A stretch of 64,000 bases of DNA from Obelidium mucronatum (taxonomy: Eukaryota > Chytridiomycota > Chytridiomycetes > Chytridiales > Chytriomycetaceae), in contig JAIVFH010000140.1 in assembly GCA_025765595.1 (NCBI GenBank), forward strand, positions 1 through 64,000, written 5' to 3'. The notes under the pieces were generated by a model. The model was not told where the DNA came from and made no database searches. It saw only the letters and a program-made list of their open reading frames with translations. This document shows positions 32,516 to 64,000 of this stretch, piece by piece. Made by a program: the position numbers and the translations under genes. The stretch's first letter is position 1. Each line of letters starts with the position of its first letter.

Positions 32516-33170
32516 AGACAGTGGTTCCTTTTCCTTTTGTTATTCAATAAAATTAAATTGAATATAGATCTTACTGATTCAAAATCATTACTTTGTTGCA
32601 TCCACTAATCGGGTGAGTCCAACGAGACACTATCATAAACAGTAGGTGACACAGCACTGGACAATCACAGTCGCTAGACACTGTATGGCTAAGAGGCGGC
32701 TTATGACTCTCAGGGAAAGGGGTGGTGGACGTTGCTTGCACACGAGCTTACTTCCACAGAAGCGACAAGGGTGAAGTATCGTGCATGCGCACACTTCTCC
32801 GCATTTTTGTCCCTTTTCCGGTGAAGGGGCTGGTGGATATGGGATAGGGTTTGCTGCTCCGGAAGCCGCCGGTGCAATCCGTCGCACCGGGAAAGAACCG
32901 ACAATAAACCAAATACAATCAATTGTAACACGGGATGCCTCCAATTTCCCAGGAACTGCGGTCCAGGTGAGTTCCCAGAACGCCCCATAGGCTGAGCGCG
33001 GCTGTGTGCTACAGATCCAGCCACACTCTCCGCAAGCCTGAGCTCCAAGACCACGCTGTAAGCCCAGATCCCTCCCGCGGATATAACCTATGGGTTTTTC
33101 ATTGTTTGGTTAGTAATCTCTCCACACCTTTAATTCCCGTGCGAAGTTAAACTGATCACAATCAGCGGTC
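32516..33170. other. Probable leader and gag start of a second gypsy copy, minus strand
   Basis: The DNA next to the primer-binding site at 33,171 should be retrotransposon leader. Two overlapping minus frames (33054-32710 and 32944-32633) have cysteine pairs (CGEVCACTILHPCRFCGSK) but no clear Gag motif. The outer boundary is not visible. Confidence 0.35.
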
Positions 33171-33187
33171 CCTTGCCCTGATACCAA
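33171..33187 (-). promoter_or_regulatory. Primer-binding site for initiator tRNA-Met
   Basis: On the minus strand TGGTATCAGGGCAAGGG directly follows the LTR end, one or two bases away. TGGTATCAG is the complement of the 3' end of initiator tRNA-Met and is a common LTR-element primer site. Confidence 0.65.
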
Positions 33188-33188
33188 C

Positions 33189-33876
33189 TGCGGAAATAGC
33201 TGCCGCTACAACTTTGATTCTATCAAAGGGTTAAAAGCAAACAAATAAAGAAAGAAGAAGAAGATAGAAGAATAAAGAACGAACTTAAATAAAACACCGC
33301 TTACTAACCCCGCTCCCTACGTCACGCGCCTCAAGCCCATCATCCACCCTCATCTCCCCACACGCCACTGTTTGATTTTGACCAGCCCTCACCTCTGCCG
33401 CACCGTGGGTCATCAAACACGTGATAATAATTATTACTAGCTAGACGGAATTGTAATCGCGGTCCCGGGTCCCTGCCTTGGGGTCCGCAATCCGCAACAC
33501 AGTTAAGTCGCGCCACCAGAATTCCAATAGCGCCTTTCTCGATCCTCCGCTACCAGTCTGGGCCACTCTGTGTCCGCCGCCTCCAGGCCTACGTAATAAT
33601 TACCGCAAGGTCCCGTGGATCTCTTCGATCCACTCATGTGACTTGCGTTACACACGCGTCATCTGACATCAAACCCCTTGTCCTGCGAACGCATCACAGG
33701 AGAACAATAGAATGCGTTAAGTTGCGCATCTAGAGAACCTACACCCTCCCCAGGATAATCATGTAAGTAACCGACACGTTTTTACTCTGAAACTGGGACT
33801 CGTGGTAAGCCCTGTAGAGCTGGATAGTGGCCTACTATTTCATTCTCAGCAACTTGTATTTTATTTCTTCACCGCA
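33189..33876 (-). repeat. 688-bp LTR of the gypsy element
   Basis: In element orientation it starts TGCGGTGAAG and ends ATTTCCGCA, with inverted ends TGCGG/CCGCA. A polypurine tract lies on one side and a primer-binding site on the other. Only one copy is in the window. Positions 33,466-33,680 hold short plus ORFs without meaning. Confidence 0.75.
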
Positions 33877-33900
33877 TCCCCTTTTTGTAGTTTCCCCCAC
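33877..33900 (-). promoter_or_regulatory. Polypurine tract of the gypsy element
   Basis: Minus strand reads GTGGGGGAAACTACAAAAAGGGGA directly before the LTR start TGCGG (shown here only as two runs, GTGGGGG and AAAAAGGGGA). It primes plus-strand DNA synthesis. Confidence 0.7.
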
Positions 33901-34250
33901 AAAATGTAAATCTGCAACAAAGAAATCCAATTCCCCCAACACAAATAAATAAATAATAAATAACCAAATAAATCATAAATAAATAAGTGTGTAAATAAAG
34001 ATAAAATAAAGTGAATTAAAGAAACCCTAGTGAAGTGAATTCCCACTTCACAGTAGCCTCTCTTTCAACCATATGCTCGTCCCTGAACATATACCTCACC
34101 CTACAAATTATCCTTAAACCCCAAAATCCTAAAAACCAATAAAACCCAAAAACAACCAAAGACAAAAACTGACTCCTCACGTCCGTGACTTGTCTAAAAA
34201 AATCTTTGGCCCAAAACAAAACTCCTCCAAAATAAATAAAAACAAACTCC
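33901..34250. repeat. A/T-rich 3' untranslated region of the gypsy element
   Basis: Rich in AATA and AAATAAAT runs between the last pol codons and the polypurine tract. No gene seen. Confidence 0.6.
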
Positions 34251-35206
34251 TTAACCCTCCTCGGCATTTCGCTGGTTCCTCTCAGCAATCCTTCTAGAAC
34301 TTCTAGAAGGCATCACAGTAGGTGGTGGTAATGGTTTAGCTTCCCTCCTAGGTTGCCTAGGGACCTTTGACCTCAAAGGTACATTGACCACTACTGGATC
34401 AACCAGTGAAGGGTCTTGGGGATCAACATCCCTTGGCAAAGGTTCATCCCCTTTGTTTCTGCTCTTAAACCAGATCCTATATTTCCTATAGAATTCACCA
34501 TTGTGTTCCTTCTGTTCTTCCCAGAAGATTCTCTTTGTCTCCTCAGGCAAAGTAAGTCATTGAACACCCTGTTCTCCCTAACAGGTTGATTCCTAAACTT
34601 AACCAAGTACCAGAACATATTCTGTTCTCTCCAAACACTAACCATCTTCTCAATTTCGTAGAGAGGATTAACTTCATCTTCCGGATCATAGTCTGGGTCA
34701 AGTTTCTTCCTCAATAGAGGATCAGTAGTGTATAAGGGCTGGTGTGAATGCACCGGTCTCCTTGTTAAGAGTAAGGCCTTGTTTTTCCAAGTTTCCAACT
34801 CCTCCTCAAAACTAGGATGACTGTTGATCACAGCTGCTTCTGCTGAATCAATGGGTTTTCTAGGAGTGAAGGGTCTTAACCTACCCACATGGACTTCACG
34901 AGTAGTAATCTCTCCTCCAGGGAAGGTCTCTACAACAGTGAAAGATGACTCAGAGTCTCCTCCTGACTGAGAGATAATTCTCACAGGTCCAACCCATCTA
35001 AATATAAACTTCTTAGGGGCTCCTAATCTTTGAGCTTCTCCATCCAAGGGAATAGCCAACCAGGCTCTGTCACCAACATCAAATGTATGAGGTGCAGAGT
35101 CGGCATCTCTGGACTTAGCAGCCAAAGCAGCTTTCTTCAAAGCCACTTTTGCTTTAACAACTTCCTGTGCAGCCTGAAGCCCCTTTAAGGTTTCCTTTAT
35201 TGCCAA
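34251..35206 (-). pseudogene. Gypsy integrase C-terminus: GPY/F module and chromodomain
   Basis: The 271-codon frame from 35,206 has KKFIFRWVGPVRIISQSG, the GPY/F module following the integrase core. A chromodomain-like part reads PLYEIEKMVSVWREQNMFWY then LVKFRNQP. In chromoviruses this domain guides integration to marked chromatin. The frame shifts near 34,540, after which 34550-34251 gives a proline- and arginine-rich tail ending TAA. Confidence 0.7.
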
Positions 35207-35225
35207 CTTACGCCTTTCAGAAGCA

Positions 35226-36107
35226 CTAAGTTTGGGCAGGTTGTCTATATTCCAACCAAGATTCCAAGTAACTAGTACTCAGGTCTTCTCCAAAATAGAA
35301 GTATTCACCATGGGGGGTGTTCAAGGCACAAAGAGGTGCCTGCAACTTCCAAAGTTGTCCTGAATTAGCCCACAAAGCGACAGGTCTGAACATAAAAAGT
35401 TTTGTAGTCCTTGGGTCAAACAGAACTTGTGTTCTGTCCTCAGAAGTTCCATCTCTACCATAGCAACGGTAGGTGCAAGAGACAACACCAATGGCATTAT
35501 TTCTATGTAAGGTGATGACAGGTTTTCCAAACTCTTCTGTCAATTCTTCTGGTGGAGGCCTGCGTGAGTAAATTGCAACCCATCTTCTAGGAGGCATGTG
35601 TCCCTTCCTCACTGCTGAAGACTCTAGGTGTTTGGGATCAAGTTTATAGACTGCATCCACCAAGTCCACACGGTCACCATTATTGAGGTAAAAGAATCTA
35701 GGCATGATATCTTTAACAGTCTTCACCCTAGGGTTATAGACTAAACAAAAAATATCCAAGTCATGTTTTTCCATGATTTCCTTCAACCTCTGCCATAGAA
35801 CTTGTTGGTCTTTTAAGTATCCATATAGGTGTTTGCAACACTTATCATTAAATTGGTCCAGACTAGAAAACTGAGCTACAGCAATGTTTGGGAAATCACT
35901 GTCTCTCACAATTGGTGTGGCTTTGAACATTGTATGAGTTTCTAATTCTTCCTGTTCCACGATTTCTACAGGGACCTCAGGATAGATGTTATCGTTAGGA
36001 CTAATACCATAAAACATGTCAGCCGGCAACCTAGCATCACGCGCATGCCAACCAAAGAAAGGAGTTTCATTAGTTAGAGAATGTGCATGTGTTCTATAAG
36101 CAAACAT
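35226..36107 (-). pseudogene. Gypsy integrase end plus an extra region of about 250 residues
   Basis: The first residues (MFAYRTHAHSLTNETPFFGW) are the usual integrase A-YR/N-x-x-x-H-x-x-T-x-x-x-P-F segment. The next 250 residues, up to the GPY/F module, do not match a domain I know; they contain IMPRFFYLNNGDRVDLVDAV, PPRRWVAIYSRRPPP and TKLFMFRPVALW. Integrases normally have a shorter linker here. This frame is uninterrupted. Confidence 0.6.
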
Positions 36108-36109
36108 GA

Positions 36110-36742
36110 TAAAAGGGAGTATATCTTCCCAATCATTAAAATGGACTTATCAATATAAGCCCGAATCTCCTGGGATAAGTTAATAAGTCTTTCAACTGGA
36201 CCATTGGCTCTAGGCCAGTAAGGAGATGTGAAGGTCTTTTCAAATCCCAACATTCTGCTTAACTGCATCATTAAGTCACTGTCTAAGGGGTGGACCTCCA
36301 TCTGTGTGTAGGAACACTGGGATCCCATTTCTACAGAATATCTGTGTAACCAGTGCTCTACAGACAGTTGCTGCCTTCCAGGTTAGGAATAGGGATGGCC
36401 TCAGCCCATTTTGTGAAGCTATCAACCCACACCATCACATAGCAGTTCCCTGAAGGGCCAGGTGGAAGAGGACCCACAAAGTCTAAGAAGGTTCTCTCAT
36501 TGGGAAACTCTCCTGAATGGAATAGGATGTAGGTAGCCTGTCTTAGCCACAAAATCCTTAGATTTCTGACAAACTATGCATGAAGCAACATGATTTTGCA
36601 AGTCAGTGATAATGGTAGGCCACCAATATCTATCCAAGAGGGTAGGCAAGATCTTGGCATGACCCAAGTGTCCTGCATAGAGGTCATCATGGTGCCTTTT
36701 TAGGATTTCCCTTTTCATGCCATCAGGGTACACATAAGGCAA
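36110..36742 (-). pseudogene. Gypsy integrase: zinc finger and catalytic core
   Basis: Zinc finger: RHHDDLYAGHLGHAK followed by CIVCQKSK (HHCC). Core: TFLDFVGPLPPGPSGNCYVM (first Asp), HTDGGPPLRQ in another frame near 36,290 (second Asp), and SPYWPRANGPVERLI (Glu). All three catalytic residues can be read, but the region uses three frames and has a TGA after GGPPLRQ. Confidence 0.8.
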
Positions 36743-37079: not shown

Positions 37080-37935
37080 CAAGTTGGTGTGCAGCTCTAG
37101 GCGCAAATGGTCACTCTGAGGCATTGAGGAATCAATTCTCACATCAAATCCATCTGGACTTATTCTGTTATCAATCAAAATATGATCAATTCTCCAGAAA
37201 GGGTATTCAACTTGGTTCTTGGCCTTCAAAAGCCAAGTTGCACCCATATCATGGGGGTGTTTAACACGAAAACCGTCAGTGATAGTCAACTTTCATCTCC
37301 TTAAACCAATCTTGCTCTTCTTGGGATATAGTAGAAGGGAAATGACCCTCGAGTCCTTCCTCTTGTATCAGAGGTAACACATCAGCGCTTGAAGGCGCTA
37401 TGTTCAAATCTCCTAACAAGATAACTAGGTAAGATTCTCTCAAGACTATACAGTGTTTCTTGAGGTCAGTCAAGAAGTGCATCTTGTACTCATGTCGCTC
37501 TAACCTTTTCATCCCACTTGGAACATAAGTATTGACAATTGCTAGGTCCCCTAGGAACAGAGTTAGGACTCTGCCCTCATCATCAGGATATCTATCCTTG
37601 ACAATGGTTCTGTTCATGCCAGGTAACAGTTTTGCATTCCACTTTACCATGAAGTTCTTTCCTCCACATAATGCCGACACCAGCATAGCCAGTCTCAGTA
37701 TCATTGAGAGAACATTCCCAGTTTGGGAGTTCCTGCAAAGCTTTCAACAATTTCTTACTTTTGTTGTCCTTACCCATTCGAGTTTCTTGCAGACAAATGA
37801 TGCTACATCTTTGAGAGCTCAAGAAGTGTTCCAAAGTTTCGGTTAAAGGGCACTGTTCTAAGGAATTATCCTTGGAGTATTTTTTAAGAAGGCTTCTCAG
37901 CCCATTGATGTTCCAAGTTGAAACATTGACACTTG
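37080..37935 (-). pseudogene. Exonuclease III/APE1-type AP endonuclease domain within gypsy pol
   Basis: About 285 residues, the usual size of the family. Motifs in order: VSTWNINGLRSLL (Asn of motif I, as human APE1 N68), IICLQETRM (Glu, E96), TGYAGVGIMW, EGRVLTLF, AIVNTYVPSG (Tyr, Y171), ILLGDLNIAPSSADV (Asp/Asn, D210/N212), FWRIDHILID (Asp, D283) and PQSDHLRLEL (Asp/His, D308/H309). Every metal and catalytic position is present. The family cuts DNA 5' of abasic sites; LINE endonucleases are distant relatives, but the EGRV, NTYVP, DLN(I)A and WRID pattern is closer to the repair enzymes. Here it is preceded by RNase H and a 130-residue linker and followed by the pre-integrase region. Two one-base shifts, near 37,640 and 37,285, break the frame in this copy. 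Confidence 0.9.
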
Positions 37936-38803
37936 GTACGAGGTGACCAAGTTTCTGTTTTGGAGACTTCTTCAAGTCCCTAACATTTGAAATCTTTCTT
38001 TCAAGTTTGTTTTTCTTCATAATCATCTTACCAATCCCTGACATTAAGTCATTTATGTTTTCTGGCTCAGCAGCTACTGAGATGTGTGCAAGAGTCTCTT
38101 GACAGATTCTCCTGAACTCGCTTTTTGCAAACTGTCTCTGGCTGTCATTTTCTGAGTATTTGTCAAACATGTAAGTCTCATACAAAGTTTTGAGGGGCTC
38201 TCTTATCCCCTGGTCATCTCTATGACCTTCAGCCTCTTTTTCAACTATCTCCTTCATCCTCGAAGGAGTTTCCTGGGTATCAAAAGGATCTGGTGTCCCC
38301 GATTTATTATGTAAGTTAATTCTGGACAAGTTGTCAGCAACAATTTGTTGTTTTCCTGGGACATGAACCAAAGTTATGTCATAATCACTAAGGGCATAAG
38401 CCCATCGCGCAAAACGTCCAGTTAAGGCGCCATTTTTAAACAAAGGAATCAAAGCAGAGTGGTCTGTTTCAATAGTTACAGGTCTCTGAAAGATGTATTT
38501 GTCAAAGCAGTTGACAGACCAAATCACTGCAAGGCCCTCCCTATCAGTATTTGTGTATCTTTGTTCAACTTCAGATAATGTCCTTGAAATGAAAGCAACA
38601 GGCTTTCTGTCACTTCTCTTTCCTGTAGTCCCCTTGATAAAGAGGGCAGCTCCTAAGGCTGTTCCTGAGGCATCACATTCAATAACAAATGTGTCCTCAG
38701 GCCCAGGTATATGCATCAGGTTGTCAGCACTTAGCTGTTTAACTAAGTCTCTAAAACTTTTCTCACAGGCCTCAGTCCATAACCATGAGCTATCAGCCTT
38801 CAA
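37936..38803 (-). pseudogene. Gypsy RNase H and linker to the endonuclease
   Basis: RNase H motifs FVIECDASGTALGAALF, RYTNTDREGLAVIWSV, TIETDHSALIPLF and GKQQIVADNLSRI are those of Ty3/gypsy. The next 130 residues are charged and without known domain (for example ETPSRMKEIVEKEAEGHRDD). The same uninterrupted frame runs into the endonuclease, showing that it is fused to pol and not a separate insertion. Confidence 0.85.
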
Positions 38804-40005
38804 TAGGGAGTACAGAGGGGCAGCTATCTGAGCAAAGTTTCTAACAAACCTTCTAAAGTAATTTCCAAATCCTAGAAAGACTGTAACTGTTTAACTGTCT
38901 TTGGTCTAGGCCAGTTGGCCAGTTCAGCTAATTTGCTTGCATCTTTTCTAAGCCCATCCTTAGAAATGCGGTGACCCAAGAATGGTAGTTCTGAGTGGAA
39001 CAAAGTGCACTTTGAAGGTTTAATCTTCAGGTTGTGGTCCCACATTCTTTGAAAGACTTTTTCCAAGTGTTCAAAGTGTTCTTCCTCAGTGTTGGAGTAG
39101 ATGACTACATCATCAACATAAACCATTGCAAACAGGAATCTATATCCTGCAAGGACAGCATCCATTAGTCTCTGGAAACTAGGTGGTGAATTAGTAAGTC
39201 CAAAAGGTAGGACTTTGTACTCAAAGAGTCCCTGAGAGGAGATAAAGGCAGTCTTATCCATACTCTCAGGATCCATAGGGATCTGCCAGAATCCTGACAA
39301 TAAGTCTCTAGAGGAAAAGTAATGTCTATTTCCTATCATATCAAATGTCTCATCAATCCTTGGTAAAGGATATTTGTCCTGTTTAGTTAAGGCATTAATT
39401 CGCCTATAATCAGTGCAGAATCTCCAAGTTCCATCAGCTTTCTTTGCAAGAACCACTGGGGAAGCATACTGAGATGTAGATGGCTGAATAATACCATTTT
39501 TGAGCATAGTCTCAATGTGTTCCTTCAAGATGGCTGTTCTTCCTGCACCTTCAGGGTATGGATGGCTATGAGGGATTCTTGCACCTTCCTTCAGCTCAAT
39601 CTTATGAGGTGGCATTCTTTTTGTGCCTGTTACAACATCACTTTTAAAGATGTTAACATACTTCCTGGCTAAGTCAAGGAGCCTCTTTTTTGTTTGAGGT
39701 GAGTAAAGAGAGTCCATGTGTGACAGGTTTAGCTTCTTTAGGACAGCTTCATCATCACTGAAGAGCTCAGGGATGTAATTCCTTTTTTCTTCCAGACTAG
39801 TATCATGAGCTGGGATGGAATCCATGATAGGATTAGTATAAGGTTCTGTTGAATCAGTGTTCAAGGTTTCTTTGACTTCCAAACCAAGAATGAAGTTCCT
39901 CTTAGACTGGGCTTGCTTTCTAAGTTGACAAGGGTTCAAGGGGAATGGGCCCTTGACATCAATGCTATCTGAAGACAAAACTTCTGTTTCACACAAGGCT
40001 GAATA
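38804..40005 (-). pseudogene. Gypsy reverse transcriptase
   Basis: RT motifs: YASPVVLAKKADGTWRFCTD, INALTKQDKYPLPRIDE, FSSRDLLSGFWQIPM, VLPFGLTNSPPSFQRLMD, the catalytic YVDDVVIYS near 39,110 and FLGHRISKDGL. The frame ends early at LQSF; one base must be restored near 38,873 to read on through LGFGNYFRRFVRNF into RNase H. The first residues of the listed frame (up to about 40,005) derive from the copia A junction. Protease is missing. Confidence 0.88.
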
Positions 40006-40061
40006 AAAAGTTTGAGTAGCCACCACCAACAGCACCAAAACTAGTAACGGCGCCGCGACGA

Positions 40062-41785
40062 ATGTCTCAGAGACTCAGCAAATCACGGACATTGCTTGCG
40101 ACGACGCTGCTGTGCTCACCAACACTCGACGAAGAGGAAACACATGTTTTTGGTGAAGAATGGTCATCAGCGACGATCGAAGACAAATTACACGATGTAC
40201 CACTTACCTTGACGCCTATCTCGAAGACTCCTGAATCACCAAAGACACGGAATGCAGCCATGAAGAACAAATTCCAAGAAGAATGGCTTGCAGCCGAAAA
40301 AGCCGAACTCGACGCGCTCGTGGACAACAAGACCTATAGACTTGTCAAGCTCCTGACGGCATCAATATCGTTGGCAGCAAATGGGTTTACAAGGTCAAGT
40401 TGAACAGCGATGGATCTGTTGAAAGATTTAAGGCGCGTTTAGTCGCTCAGGGATATACACAACAATTCGGATTGGATTATACGGAGACTCACTCACCGGT
40501 TATGCGGGCAGCAACTTTCAGATGGCTTTTATCGCTCACAGCAATCAACGGGTGGGATACCCGCATGTGCGACGTGAGCACCGCATACTTGTATGGCGAT
40601 ATCAACGAACCTGTCTACATGAAGCAGCCTCCCGGATACGACGATGGAACCGGCAGGGTCTATGAACTCCTAAAAGGACTTTACGGATTAAAACAAGCGG
40701 GTCGTATATGGTATAAGAAGTTGACGACTCACCTCAAAGAAACAGGATATACTCAGTCGAAAGCGGACCTGTGCGTCTTCTTTAAGACTGTGGATGGCAA
40801 GACGGTGTACTTGGCTATCTACGTCGACGACTTGTGTTTCTTTGGCGACCAAGCACTTATCAATGAGGGCGTGATTTCTCTTAGAAAGGAATTCAAAATG
40901 CGAGACTTAGGAAAAATTACCTACACAATCGGAATACAAGTTGAACACGTGCCCTCCGGAATCTTCATCCACCAATCAAAATACATCAAGGAAATCTTGG
41001 AGCGATTTACGGGGCATTTTTCGCATTATCCAATTTCCACTCCTTTGCCAAGCTCATTTTCACCAACTCCAGCATCAGACACCACCCCCCTCTTCAACAA
41101 CCCATCCCTATACCTCGAAGCCATCGGATGCCTTAACTACGCAGCTATCAACACTTGCCCGGATATCTCTACAGCTATCTCCTTTCTATCCATCTTCTCC
41201 AGCAAACCATCTCAGCAACACTGGGAAGACCTCATGCGTGTCTTCCGCTACATCCATGATACACAAGACCACGGTATCTTCTACTCTAAACAAGGCAATT
41301 CAAGTCCTATCGGCTACAGCGACGCCGCGTACAACATCCACCACGAAGCTAAGTCGCAGCTTGGCTACATGGTTGTTCTCGCGGATGGCGTCATCAGCTG
41401 GAAATCCATCAAGACTCCAGTCACTCCACTCTCATCTACAGAAGCCGAATACATGTCTATCAGCGAATTAGGACGCGAACTACAGTCTTTCATTCAGCTA
41501 TACGATACACTCAACATACCGCTTGACAAACCAATTCAAGTATTCGAAGATAACCAGTCTACAATTCATCAATGCAACAACGACGTATTCTCACATCGAT
41601 CAAAACACATCAATATTCGATACCACTATATTCGCGAACTAGTCAATTTAAAGCAAGTCAAGGTCACTTGGATCAAGACCGCTGACCAGCCAGCCGATTT
41701 ACTCACCAAGTGCCTTGGACGCGACCAATTCAAGAAACTACGTGCCAAATTTGGCATGATGTCTCTTACTGCGATTACAATTTAA
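40062..41785 (+). pseudogene. Copia A reverse transcriptase and RNase H, one frameshift
   Basis: The first frame (40,062-40,403) covers the RT N-terminus. A missing C near 40,352 shifts the frame; with it the reading would pass through GSKWVYKVKLNSDGS to the 461-codon frame at 40,400. That contains FKARLVAQGYTQQFGLDYTE, VSTAYLYGDINEPVYMKQPP, LKGLYGLKQAGRIW, YVDDLCFFG and copia RNase H motifs ending KHINIRYHYIRE. It is nearly identical to 12,843-14,270. Confidence 0.88.
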
Positions 41786-61774: not shown

Positions 61775-62713
61775 AAAGAAATGATTCAGGAAGTAGTTGG
61801 GGAGATTACAAAGGAAGCAACGGCTAGATGGATGGAACGCATGAAGGTACCACTTACCGACATGGCCGAAAAACTCCAAATGCTAGAAGTGGAGGTACTG
61901 GTCAATGCCAAAGGGGCACTTGAGAAGGGGAGCGACGGGACAACAGGCGAACCAACGCTACGCCAAATCGTCGAGACGGCGGGGTGATGACTTCTACTTG
62001 TTGGATAGGGATGTTGAAGAAATATTCAAGCGGGTGAGGGGCCTCGAGAAGTATGTTGGGGTAAGATGGAGACATGCAGATGAAACAAACAGCAACAAAG
62101 AACTCACCACCACCAAGTAAGAGCACCACTGGAGAGAAGGAGAGAAAGAGAACGAAACAATGGTAGTTCCCAAGCACAAGTGGAAATCGGTCCTAGAAGC
62201 GGTGGAATCAATGAAAAAGAGAAGAAGAAAGGACAGCTACCAACCGGAATACAGCAGCAGCCAAGACAACAGCAAAACTCCAACCAAAGAAACCGAAAGA
62301 GACATCGAAAGAGGTGCGAGAGGAGCGAAGAACAATGCGGTCAGCAGAAAGACGAACATCGCAGCAACTGCAGCGGAAGACAACACTCACCAGACGAAAC
62401 ACTGGCCAACGGATCTGATCCCAACAACTCAAGTCAAAAAAGCCGAAACGGAGGACGTGGTAATGGAAGATTCAAGAGACACAGGTAAAACAAAAGCAAC
62501 GCATCAGATTTATACTAAAGATAAAAATAGAAACAATCTAAGAGCCAACAGTCCCCACCCAGACTCCTCCAAATTGGCCATAGTGGTCCCCCTCTGCTTC
62601 ACCTTTCCTTTCCGATTTATGTACCCCCGGCGTCTTAGCGTGTTGACGCAGAAGCCTTATTTATTTATTATTCAACTCAATTAAAAACAAAAACAAAAAC
62701 AAATAAACACAAC
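61775..62713 (+). pseudogene. Probable 5' region/ORF1 of the right-edge LINE
   Basis: Pieces in three frames: a helical MIQEVVGEITKEATARWMER (61,760-61,987), FYLLDRDVEEIFKRVRGLEK (61,905-62,120) and a basic K/E/T-rich frame at 62,160-62,684. Composition is like the LINE ORF that follows, so this could be an ORF1-like region. A short AAAAAC run lies just before the next ATG. Assignment is tentative. Confidence 0.4.
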
Positions 62714-64000
62714 ATGCGCCGAAATGCGCCGAACACATATATGAGTAATAAAAGGAAACTCCAAGACATGAACAAAGAGCAACTCGTAAACTGCGAGAAC
62801 AATAATAGAAAGCGCAGCAAAGTAGAAGTCACAGAGGAAGAAATGGAAAAGGCGATAGAAGAAATACACGGTAAAGGAAACGTACCCTCGGAAATAGACG
62901 CGATAATTCTAAAAATTGACACAGAAAACAATCCATTTCCCCAGGCAGGAGGATCCAGTGCTGCACAACAAGAAATACTTAAACAAAAAAGGGTAACCTG
63001 GCTCCACGAGAGACTGTTCCAAATCAGAAGGAACAAAGGAGCAATAAGACCCCAAGACGCAAAACAGAGAACAAATGAGAAAGTCAACAAAAAACTGGAA
63101 GTACTGACGAAACCAACCAAAAACCAAAAACGGATAGGAGAACCGTCCAAAAAATATAATAACAAACAACGAGGGGTCACAAAGGCTAATAAAACTAATG
63201 AAGAATCCCTAAAACAAAGAACAATCACATCTCTCTGGGACAAAACAACCAAACCCAATCAGAAGGAAACAATACTAATCACCATCAGAGATGACGAGGA
63301 CAAAGAAAATAAAGTTGAAACCCGTAAAACACCCATAAAGAAAAGGAAAAGAGAACCTGCGCAGGAAAACACTGGAATAGAAACAGGATTGGCAACACCC
63401 ATAGGCAAAAATGAGAAAAGTAATAAACTGGCAAAATCACTAACAGGGAGTAAAGCAAACATGACAGGAAAACAGAAAGACAAGAAAGAGGAGATGCCAA
63501 TTACACCCCAGACAACACCAACAAAAACGCAGAATACCAAAGAAACCTATGATGCAGAACAGCACAACCGAGAATATACAGGAAAACTTAGCCAAATAAG
63601 AACCAAACCTGACGAAACCCTCCGCATAGCAACCTACAACTGCAGGGGACTCAATGACCCCACAATGATACAAATCAGCCAATTAGTAAAAGATCACAAG
63701 ATTGACATACTGCTAGTACAAGAAACAAAGTGCACCGAAAAACAGGCACAAAAACTAATGAGTGCATATAATAGCGAATTTAAAGGACTGTCATACTGGA
63801 CAAACGCAACAGGAACTACACATAAATCTGCGGGTGTGGGGATTCTAATAGCAGAGAAATGTAATAGACACTACACAAAATGCGAAAAAATTAGCTCAAG
63901 CCTCATGTCAATAACACTTTCGTTTAAGAAAGGCACAATCAGAATTGTCAACACATACTGGCCGTCTGATGACAACGTGGAGAACACAAAGGACACAATG
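62714..64000 (+). CDS. LINE ORF2, 5' part: APE-like endonuclease, continues beyond the window
   Basis: An uninterrupted frame of 429 codons from ATG 62,714 to the last base. The first 290 residues are lysine-rich and without known domain (TPIKKRKREPAQENTG, for example). Then comes a non-LTR retrotransposon endonuclease: LRIATYNCRGLNDP (Asn motif), IDILLVQETKCTEKQ (Glu motif), SAGVGILIAEK and IRIVNTYWPSDD. This enzyme nicks the target DNA to start reverse transcription. RT and RNase H should lie to the right of the window; the RNase H end of a related copy is at 22.5-24.8 kb and another endonuclease fragment at 9.24 kb. Other ATGs at 62,741 and 62,768 are possible starts. Confidence 0.88.
   Translation, partial: MRRNAPNTYMSNKRKLQDMNKEQLVNCENNNRKRSKVEVTEEEMEKAIEEIHGKGNVPSEIDAIILKIDTENNPFPQAGGSSAAQQEILKQKRVTWLHERLFQIRRNKGAIRPQDAKQRTNEKVNKKLEVLTKPTKNQKRIGEPSKKYNNKQRGVTKANKTNEESLKQRTITSLWDKTTKPNQKETILITIRDDEDKENKVETRKTPIKKRKREPAQENTGIETGLATPIGKNEKSNKLAKSLTGSKANMTGKQKDKKEEMPITPQTTPTKTQNTKETYDAEQHNREYTGKLSQIRTKPDETLRIATYNCRGLNDPTMIQISQLVKDHKIDILLVQETKCTEKQAQKLMSAYNSEFKGLSYWTNATGTTHKSAGVGILIAEKCNRHYTKCEKISSSLMSITLSFKKGTIRIVNTYWPSDDNVENTKDTM

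What the first reader, a model, noticed from the sequence alone, without database searches (positions are those of the whole stretch)
37080..37935. AP endonuclease (ExoIII/APE1 type) built into a Ty3/gypsy pol between RNase H and integrase
Seen: one frame runs from gypsy RNase H through a 130-residue linker into WNINGLR and CLQETRM, then NTYVPSG, GDLNIAPSSADV, WRIDHILID and SDHLRLEL, then a typical pre-integrase region and HHCC finger. Known: APE-like nucleases drive LINE insertion, and some retroviruses carry dUTPase at this pol position, both uracil/abasic-site functions. Inference: the element may use its own repair nuclease to process abasic or uracil lesions in its cDNA, or to prepare target sites. 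I know of no LTR element with this order.
Basis: partly seen in the sequence, partly recalled or inferred. Interest (0 to 1): 0.95.

Follow-up and report, generated by a model that had tools for sequence, protein, structure and literature searches.

The report
Repair nuclease inside fungal gypsy retrotransposons
In the genome of what is probably a chytrid fungus, several families of virus-like jumping genes carry an AP endonuclease, a DNA-repair nuclease, inside their replication polyprotein, apparently kept by selection and found at two different places in it, an arrangement I did not find described in the papers I could search.

Summary
On the minus strand, window 37,090-37,930 encodes an AP endonuclease/exonuclease III domain between gypsy RNase H and the integrase finger. 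The window copy is a 5'-truncated relic with at least four frame breaks, but the order is not a one-off. Natural frames join RNase H, nuclease and integrase at C601 (1600 aa), C33 (1580) and C625 (1418); an outside protein (P0001, 43% identity) has RT-RH-APE. All 12 loci found with RT at least 60% identical to the window's have the domain.

A second, distant gypsy clade also carries it: after RNase H in family F (also in the chytrid Obelidium mucronatum), before RT in families G and H. One G element (C93) has identical 1007-bp LTRs, a 4-bp target duplication and an open APE-RT-RH-integrase-finger frame.

Main catalytic residues are kept in every aligned row; families differ by 40-48% in protein with synonymous sites saturated. 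All 11 aligned retrotransposon rows have Thr where 20 cellular rows have an aromatic (human Phe266); removing that aromatic raised APE1 exonuclease activity in published work. I infer an element-borne nuclease that trims or repairs cDNA 3' ends; the role is untested. Seven searches of an open-access library listed no such LTR element.

The parts
32924..34053 (-). 3' LTR (about 1.13 kb, TG..CA) of the window copy; one search found no second copy of it on this contig
   Evidence: the same LTR occurs at C601, C305, C649 and elsewhere in the genome
34391..35278 (-). integrase C-terminal part: GPY/F-like stretch (GDRAWL..FRWVGPVRI) and tail
   Evidence: the GPY/F label is recalled, Pfam gave no match here
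35079..36050 (-). extra segment (about 230 aa) in the integrase C-terminal region, conserved in families A, B/E and C, function unknown; coordinates approximate, from alignment with L034
   Evidence: PDB profile search gave one match, E 0.37; model too poor
36050..36480 (-). integrase core region, in more than one frame in this copy
   Evidence: sequence; no Pfam match to the window pieces; rve matched in L034 and L042
36550..36720 (-). integrase HHCC zinc finger
   Evidence: sequence; Integrase_H2C2 matched in L034, L035, L036, L039, L040
37090..37930 (-). AP endonuclease / exonuclease III (EEP) domain, split over three frames in this copy
37922..38380 (-). linker between RNase H and the nuclease domain (30-31% identity between families)
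38381..38701 (-). gypsy RNase H
   Evidence: PF17917 E=5e-28
38965..39444 (-). gypsy reverse transcriptase
   Evidence: PF00078 E=1.2e-35
39929..40021 (-). upstream limit of the similarity to the C305 copy; the gag side was not found in the window, and a copia RT lies beyond on the other strand
   Evidence: RVT_2 E 3e-57 at 40340-41785

Best explanation
Shown: the window holds a decayed copy of a Ty3/gypsy LTR retrotransposon family whose pol carries an APE/ExoIII-type nuclease domain between RNase H and integrase; other gypsy families in the same genome carry such a domain there or before RT. Inferred: it is a captured cellular-type nuclease that is made as part of Gag-Pol, travels in the particle with RT and integrase, and acts on the element's own cDNA: it incises abasic sites and, because the specificity pocket is opened (Thr in place of the aromatic at human Phe266), removes mispaired or blocked 3' ends before integrase joins them. 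My odds by step: domain and its place about 0.97; kept by selection about 0.9; acts on cDNA ends and lesions rather than on the target about 0.45.
Against: No biochemical or expression data. No clade-1 copy that I read has one uninterrupted frame from gag to integrase: C183 and C77 change frame, C625 and both C182 copies have an in-frame stop in RNase H, and C601, C649 and C33 lack RT sequence. C625/C128 shows no constraint (2 synonymous, 7 non-synonymous codons). Two further APE1 sites are not kept: Asn174 is Ser in 7 of 11 rows, Asn226 in none of 11. The Phe266 argument carries a result from human APE1 to an enzyme about 26% identical, and the 11 rows are only about eight families. The young element with clean integrase marks is of family G, not of the window's family; at C305 (family A) I saw no duplication.
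Confidence: 0.5

Rival explanations
1. The domain repairs abasic or uracil damage in the cDNA as an AP-site-specific enzyme, the functional counterpart of retroviral dUTPase.
For: Main catalytic residues intact; Trp280 kept in the six clade-1 rows. Fungal gypsy elements carry dUTPase at variable places in pol, one of them between PR and RT (PMC2864245, passages); retroviral dUTPase between RH and IN is recalled.
Against: The aromatic at 266 is absent in 11 of 11 rows; at 280 F and P0002 have Phe, G1, G2 and H have Met.
Confidence: 0.25
2. The domain nicks chromosomal target DNA and helps or replaces integrase, as LINE endonucleases do.
For: Same fold superfamily as LINE endonucleases (PMC8565326, passages); in families G and H the order APE-RT is that of a LINE. 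The integrase core (rve) passes Pfam's cut-off only in clade 1; it is below the cut-off in C493 and C26 and was not matched in C93 and C21.
Against: A young family-G element has TG..CA ends, two identical LTRs and a 4-bp duplication. The integrase finger was matched in each family scanned.
Confidence: 0.12
3. The domain acts as an extra RNase H or RNA-primer remover beside the gypsy RNase H.
For: Archon gypsy elements of oomycetes took up a second RNase H next to the gypsy one (PMC5348765, passages). ExoIII-family enzymes can cut RNA in hybrids (recalled); APE1 endoribonuclease activity is in an abstract start in the listing (PMC7385091).
Against: In G and H the domain is not beside RNase H; residues for RNA preference were not examined.
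Confidence: 0.13
4. One-off insertion of a LINE or host-gene fragment into a gypsy element, without function.
For: The window copy alone is broken and would fit.
Against: Recurs in frame in families with saturated synonymous sites, with main catalytic residues kept; present outside this genome.
Confidence: 0.02

Closest known systems
dUTPase-bearing fungal gypsy elements (PosPlaTy3 of Postia placenta; PMC2864245, passages read)
   Same: Gypsy pol with an added enzyme whose place in pol varies between families, one of them between PR and RT
   Different: dUTPase acts on nucleotides; here the added enzyme is a nuclease of the ExoIII/APE family
Archon and Chronos gypsy elements of oomycetes, Tat of plants (second RNase H; PMC5348765, passages read)
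   Same: Extra nuclease captured in gypsy pol, in Archon next to the gypsy RNase H
   Different: The extra domain is an RNase H, not an AP endonuclease
KnitGypsy-Dnmt3 (PMC5890265, passages read) and orchid gypsy elements with an m6A demethylase (PMC9289625, title and start of abstract only)
   Same: Cellular enzyme domain taken into gypsy elements; purifying selection reported for KnitGypsy-Dnmt3
   Different: Methyltransferase or demethylase
LINE retrotransposons with an APE-type endonuclease
   Same: EEP endonuclease in one polyprotein with RT; in families G and H also before RT
   Different: Here there are LTRs, gypsy RNase H and an integrase finger
Cellular APE1 / ExoIII / Arabidopsis ARP
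   Same: Fold and main catalytic residues
   Different: Thr at the Phe266 site; lies in a retrotransposon polyprotein

Membership tests
Ty3/gypsy LTR retrotransposon | RT, RNase H, integrase in this order | tested here: met
   the integrase core passes Pfam's cut-off only in clade 1
Ty3/gypsy LTR retrotransposon | Paired LTRs with TG..CA ends | tested here: met
   A at C305 (about 97.5% alike); G at C93 identical; C at C182 paired, ends not read; the window copy has one LTR only
Ty3/gypsy LTR retrotransposon | Short target-site duplication | tested here: inconclusive
   4-bp TTAG at C93, family G; at C305, family A, the flanks differ; others not read
Ty3/gypsy LTR retrotransposon | CCHC knuckle and aspartic protease upstream of RT | tested here: met
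   C77: zf-CCHC 2.2e-6 and Asp_protease_2 6.4e-4 before RVT_1 in one 1577-aa frame; the protease match is below Pfam's cut-off
APE1/ExoIII (xth) nuclease family | Score above the curated cut-off of TIGR00633 | tested here: met
   127, 118, 137, 135, 116 bits against 99 in 5 of 5 domains scanned. The domains of G and H pass as well
APE1/ExoIII (xth) nuclease family | Catalytic residues N68, E96, Y171, D210, N212, D283, D308, H309 | tested here: met
   roles recalled, partly seen in PMC8565326. Asn174 is Ser in 7 of 11 rows
APE1/ExoIII (xth) nuclease family | Aromatic at site 266 of the abasic pocket (typical, not strictly defining) | tested here: not met
   Thr in 11 of 11 retrotransposon rows, aromatic in 20 of 20 cellular rows; the pocket is said to be poorly conserved among family members (PMC5785985)
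APE1/ExoIII (xth) nuclease family | Nuclease activity | not testable with these tools
   needs protein
LINE (non-LTR) element | No LTRs, no integrase | tested here: not met
   LTRs and integrase present

The most novel reading that the evidence does not exclude
These gypsy lineages carry their own 3'-to-5' exonuclease tethered to reverse transcriptase or integrase: retrotransposons with a proofreading or 3'-end-finishing step. The pocket-opening change at site 266 in every aligned family, and retention of the nuclease while its place in pol differs (before RT, or between RNase H and integrase), would be the marks of that role.
Probability: 0.2. Interest if true: 0.92.

Novelty: new variant of a known kind. 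Interest (0 to 1): 0.8.

Why it matters
The accessory enzymes of gypsy elements that I found in print act on nucleotides, RNA or epigenetic marks. A repair nuclease kept in pol would suggest that an LTR retrotransposon can bring its own base-excision or proofreading step to reverse transcription, which can be tested with one purified domain. The two positions, in a clade where domain and RT branch alike, would also be a good case of a domain changing place inside a polyprotein.

Tried and rejected
LINE insertion or host-gene fragment: rejected by recurrence in frame. Chance: rejected by E-values and curated cut-offs. I first took the APE-before-RT loci for LINEs; reading three of them showed gypsy RNase H and integrase finger after RT. 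PDB search as a test of cellular against LINE origin: weak, since a LINE-like endonuclease piece at the window's end scored better to human APE1 (4e-4) than to L1 (0.03). That 136-aa piece was left out of the domain tree, so no LINE outgroup was used. TIGR00633 as such a test: not useful, since many hits in this genome pass or come near. Origin from the host's own APE gene: not tested; two loci fetched as suspected host genes (C225, C1) proved to be decayed family-G-like copies, and no letters were left for others. Model of the extra integrase segment: pLDDT 43, discarded. Relatives in viral contigs: 0 of 24 candidates. In genome contigs (prokaryotes): 0 of 39, then 578 of 595 listed stretches with 80 kept, of which 16 went into the tree. 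Protein searches gave one hit each: P0001 among 5186 candidates, P0002 among 7995 (capped), and from P0001 only itself among 7991 (capped). No collection of eukaryote genomes was on hand. dN/dS between families: most dS not computable, YN00 mostly failed. C53 shows RT then nuclease by coordinates; it was not read and is not counted. No tRNA gene in the window. Seven paper searches on LTR elements (listed of found: 30 of 176, 25 of 32, 20 of 64, 20 of 46, 20 of 62, 15 of 334, 5 of 5) showed no title or abstract start about an LTR element with an AP endonuclease domain; one search was on APE1. Unlisted papers, most subscription journals and preprints were not seen.

Full report
What is in the window. 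The minus strand from 40,021 to 32,924 carries a 5'-truncated Ty3/gypsy copy: RT (PF00078, E 1.2e-35), RNase H (5e-28), then Exo_endo_phos (2.3e-7) in the same 432-aa frame as RNase H. The rest of the nuclease domain continues in two other frames, followed by the integrase finger and core in further frames. An LTR at 32,924-34,053 closes the element. So this copy is dead, but the order is clear. Similarity to the C305 copy ends at 40,021, and a copia RT lies beyond on the other strand.

It recurs. A search of the same genome (48.3 Mb, 694 contigs) with the linker and the first part of the domain found 11 loci: family A (window, C305, C601, C649), B/E (C33, C183, C77), C/D (C625, C182 twice, C128). 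C132, C191 and C473 hold the later part of a B/E domain, and C579 and C21 a distant family F. That makes 16 loci with the domain between RT/RNase H and integrase, counted partly from coordinates and DNA alignment. Some are near-copies: C305 and C649 share their 3' flank and C579 and C21 are 99.3% alike, so there are fewer insertions than loci. Natural frames join the domains: C601 RH-APE-H2C2-rve in 1600 aa; C33 the same in 1580 aa; C625 RNase H end-APE-H2C2-rve in 1418 aa. In C77 one 1577-aa frame holds knuckle, protease-like match, RT, RNase H and, by sequence, the first part of the nuclease domain, which Pfam did not score there.

No close relative without it was found. In one search (104 of 115 candidates scored), 12 loci have RT at least 60% identical to the window's, some as fragments: C140 itself, C305, C183, C77, C182 twice, C625, C132, C191, C649, C601, C473. 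All 12 have the nuclease on the same strand. Other loci fall to 43% and less; I read one of these from RT to integrase (C172) and it has no nuclease.

A second architecture. C493, C93 and C26 have the nuclease before RT, with RNase H and integrase finger after it. By coordinates C10 (two places), C295, C151, C196, C85, C144 and C208 are alike, 11 loci in all. C93 has two identical LTRs of 1007 bp with TG..CA ends, a 4-bp duplication TTAG and an open frame of 1432 aa. That is a young, integrase-type insertion, although Pfam matched only the finger, not the core, of its integrase. For family A at C305 the LTRs are about 97.5% alike and the flanks show no duplication. At C182 a family-C LTR copy about 15 kb away on the same strand is 100% alike (rounded) over 790 bases; that the two belong to one element is inferred.

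Trees. By RT, the A, E, C and P0001 rows group (90/98), and F, G1, G2 and H form another clade (100/100); the six gypsy rows without a known nuclease fall on the first side (16 rows, 309 columns; for five of these six the absence rests only on there being no nearby hit). By the nuclease, clade 1 (100/100) and F-G-H (100/98) are each one side of a branch, and all 11 retrotransposon rows stand apart from 20 cellular rows with support 82/92, not starred (no LINE row). One origin or two is therefore open. Among F, G1, G2 and H both trees put G1 with G2 (RT 100/100; nuclease 87/50) and the nuclease tree puts F with H (98/87). I infer that the domain has been with this RT lineage since their ancestor and changed its place in pol; a later exchange is not excluded.

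Outside this genome. P0001 (source ENA, organism not given, 1052 aa, RT-RH-APE) is 43% identical over 68% of the query piece. P0002, a hypothetical protein of the chytrid Obelidium mucronatum, matches family F at 71% over 99%; Pfam found a weak RNase H and an integrase finger but did not call the nuclease there. I infer that the window's host is a chytrid near Obelidium; that is not proven.

Selection and active site. Between families the domain keeps 52-60% identity, integrase 66-70%, linker 30-31%, with dS in the domain not estimable. Recent pairs: C33/C183 7 synonymous and 1 non-synonymous codon of 266; C33/C132 9 and 1 of 161; against, C625/C128 2 and 7 of 293. Eight catalytic sites are kept in all rows that cover them; Asn174 is Ser in 7 of 11 rows and Asn226 is kept in none. 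The model of the A domain (pLDDT 71, five sequences) matches APE1 and ExoIII structures.

Mechanism. At the site of human Phe266 all 11 retrotransposon rows have Thr, all 20 cellular rows an aromatic. In PMC5785985 (passages) F266A raised the exonuclease burst rate about 20-fold without the same effect on AP incision, and APE2, which lacks the pocket, is said to prefer exonuclease substrates. I infer exonuclease-capable processing of cDNA ends, with AP-site repair as the main rival. Target nicking is less likely, because insertion of a young relative looks like integrase work.

What is known. Gypsy pol has taken up other enzymes: second RNase H (PMC5348765), dUTPase at varying places (PMC2864245), DNMT (PMC5890265); of these I read passages. 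The orchid demethylase paper (PMC9289625) I saw only in listings. PMC3248453 (passages) mentions complex fungal elements with many added domains that result from multiple insertions; its figure S1 was not seen and might hold something similar. No paper listed in my searches showed an AP endonuclease in an LTR element.

Noticed in passing
window 35079-36050 (-); L034:3012-3983; L035:6553-7518; L036:1033-2025: A second extra segment of about 230 aa in the integrase C-terminal region, 36-37% identical among families A, B/E and C, without Pfam match and with only an E 0.37 PDB match; model too poor to use.
   Followed up: partly
L034:7064/7065, L043:7825/7826, L035:3819-3826: C601 and C649 lack the same 1.8 kb of the RT region that C305 has, and C33 lacks 3.2 kb over PR-RT with 8 shared bases at the joint; C601 and C33 still keep long RH-APE-IN frames.
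   Followed up: partly
L036:4492-4494, L037:4677-4679, L040 near 4047: Family C copies carry an in-frame stop in RNase H at about the place where the B/E copy C183 changes frame; C77 and C33 are open there. Probably coincidence, possibly recoding.
   Followed up: no
window 62639-64000 (+): Start of a LINE-like frame with an EEP endonuclease (Exo_endo_phos E 2.5e-7); it runs off the window and no RT was seen, so the LINE label is a guess.
   Followed up: partly
window 34309-34639: 331 bp present in the window and C601 copies but absent from C305 and C649, in the integrase tail.
   Followed up: no
window 40340-41785 (+): Copia RT (RVT_2 E 3e-57) beside the truncated end of the gypsy copy.
   Followed up: partly
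C305:14461-28661, C182:41386-54724: Taken from LTR to LTR these elements are about 14.2 and 13.3 kb, large for gypsy.
   Followed up: no
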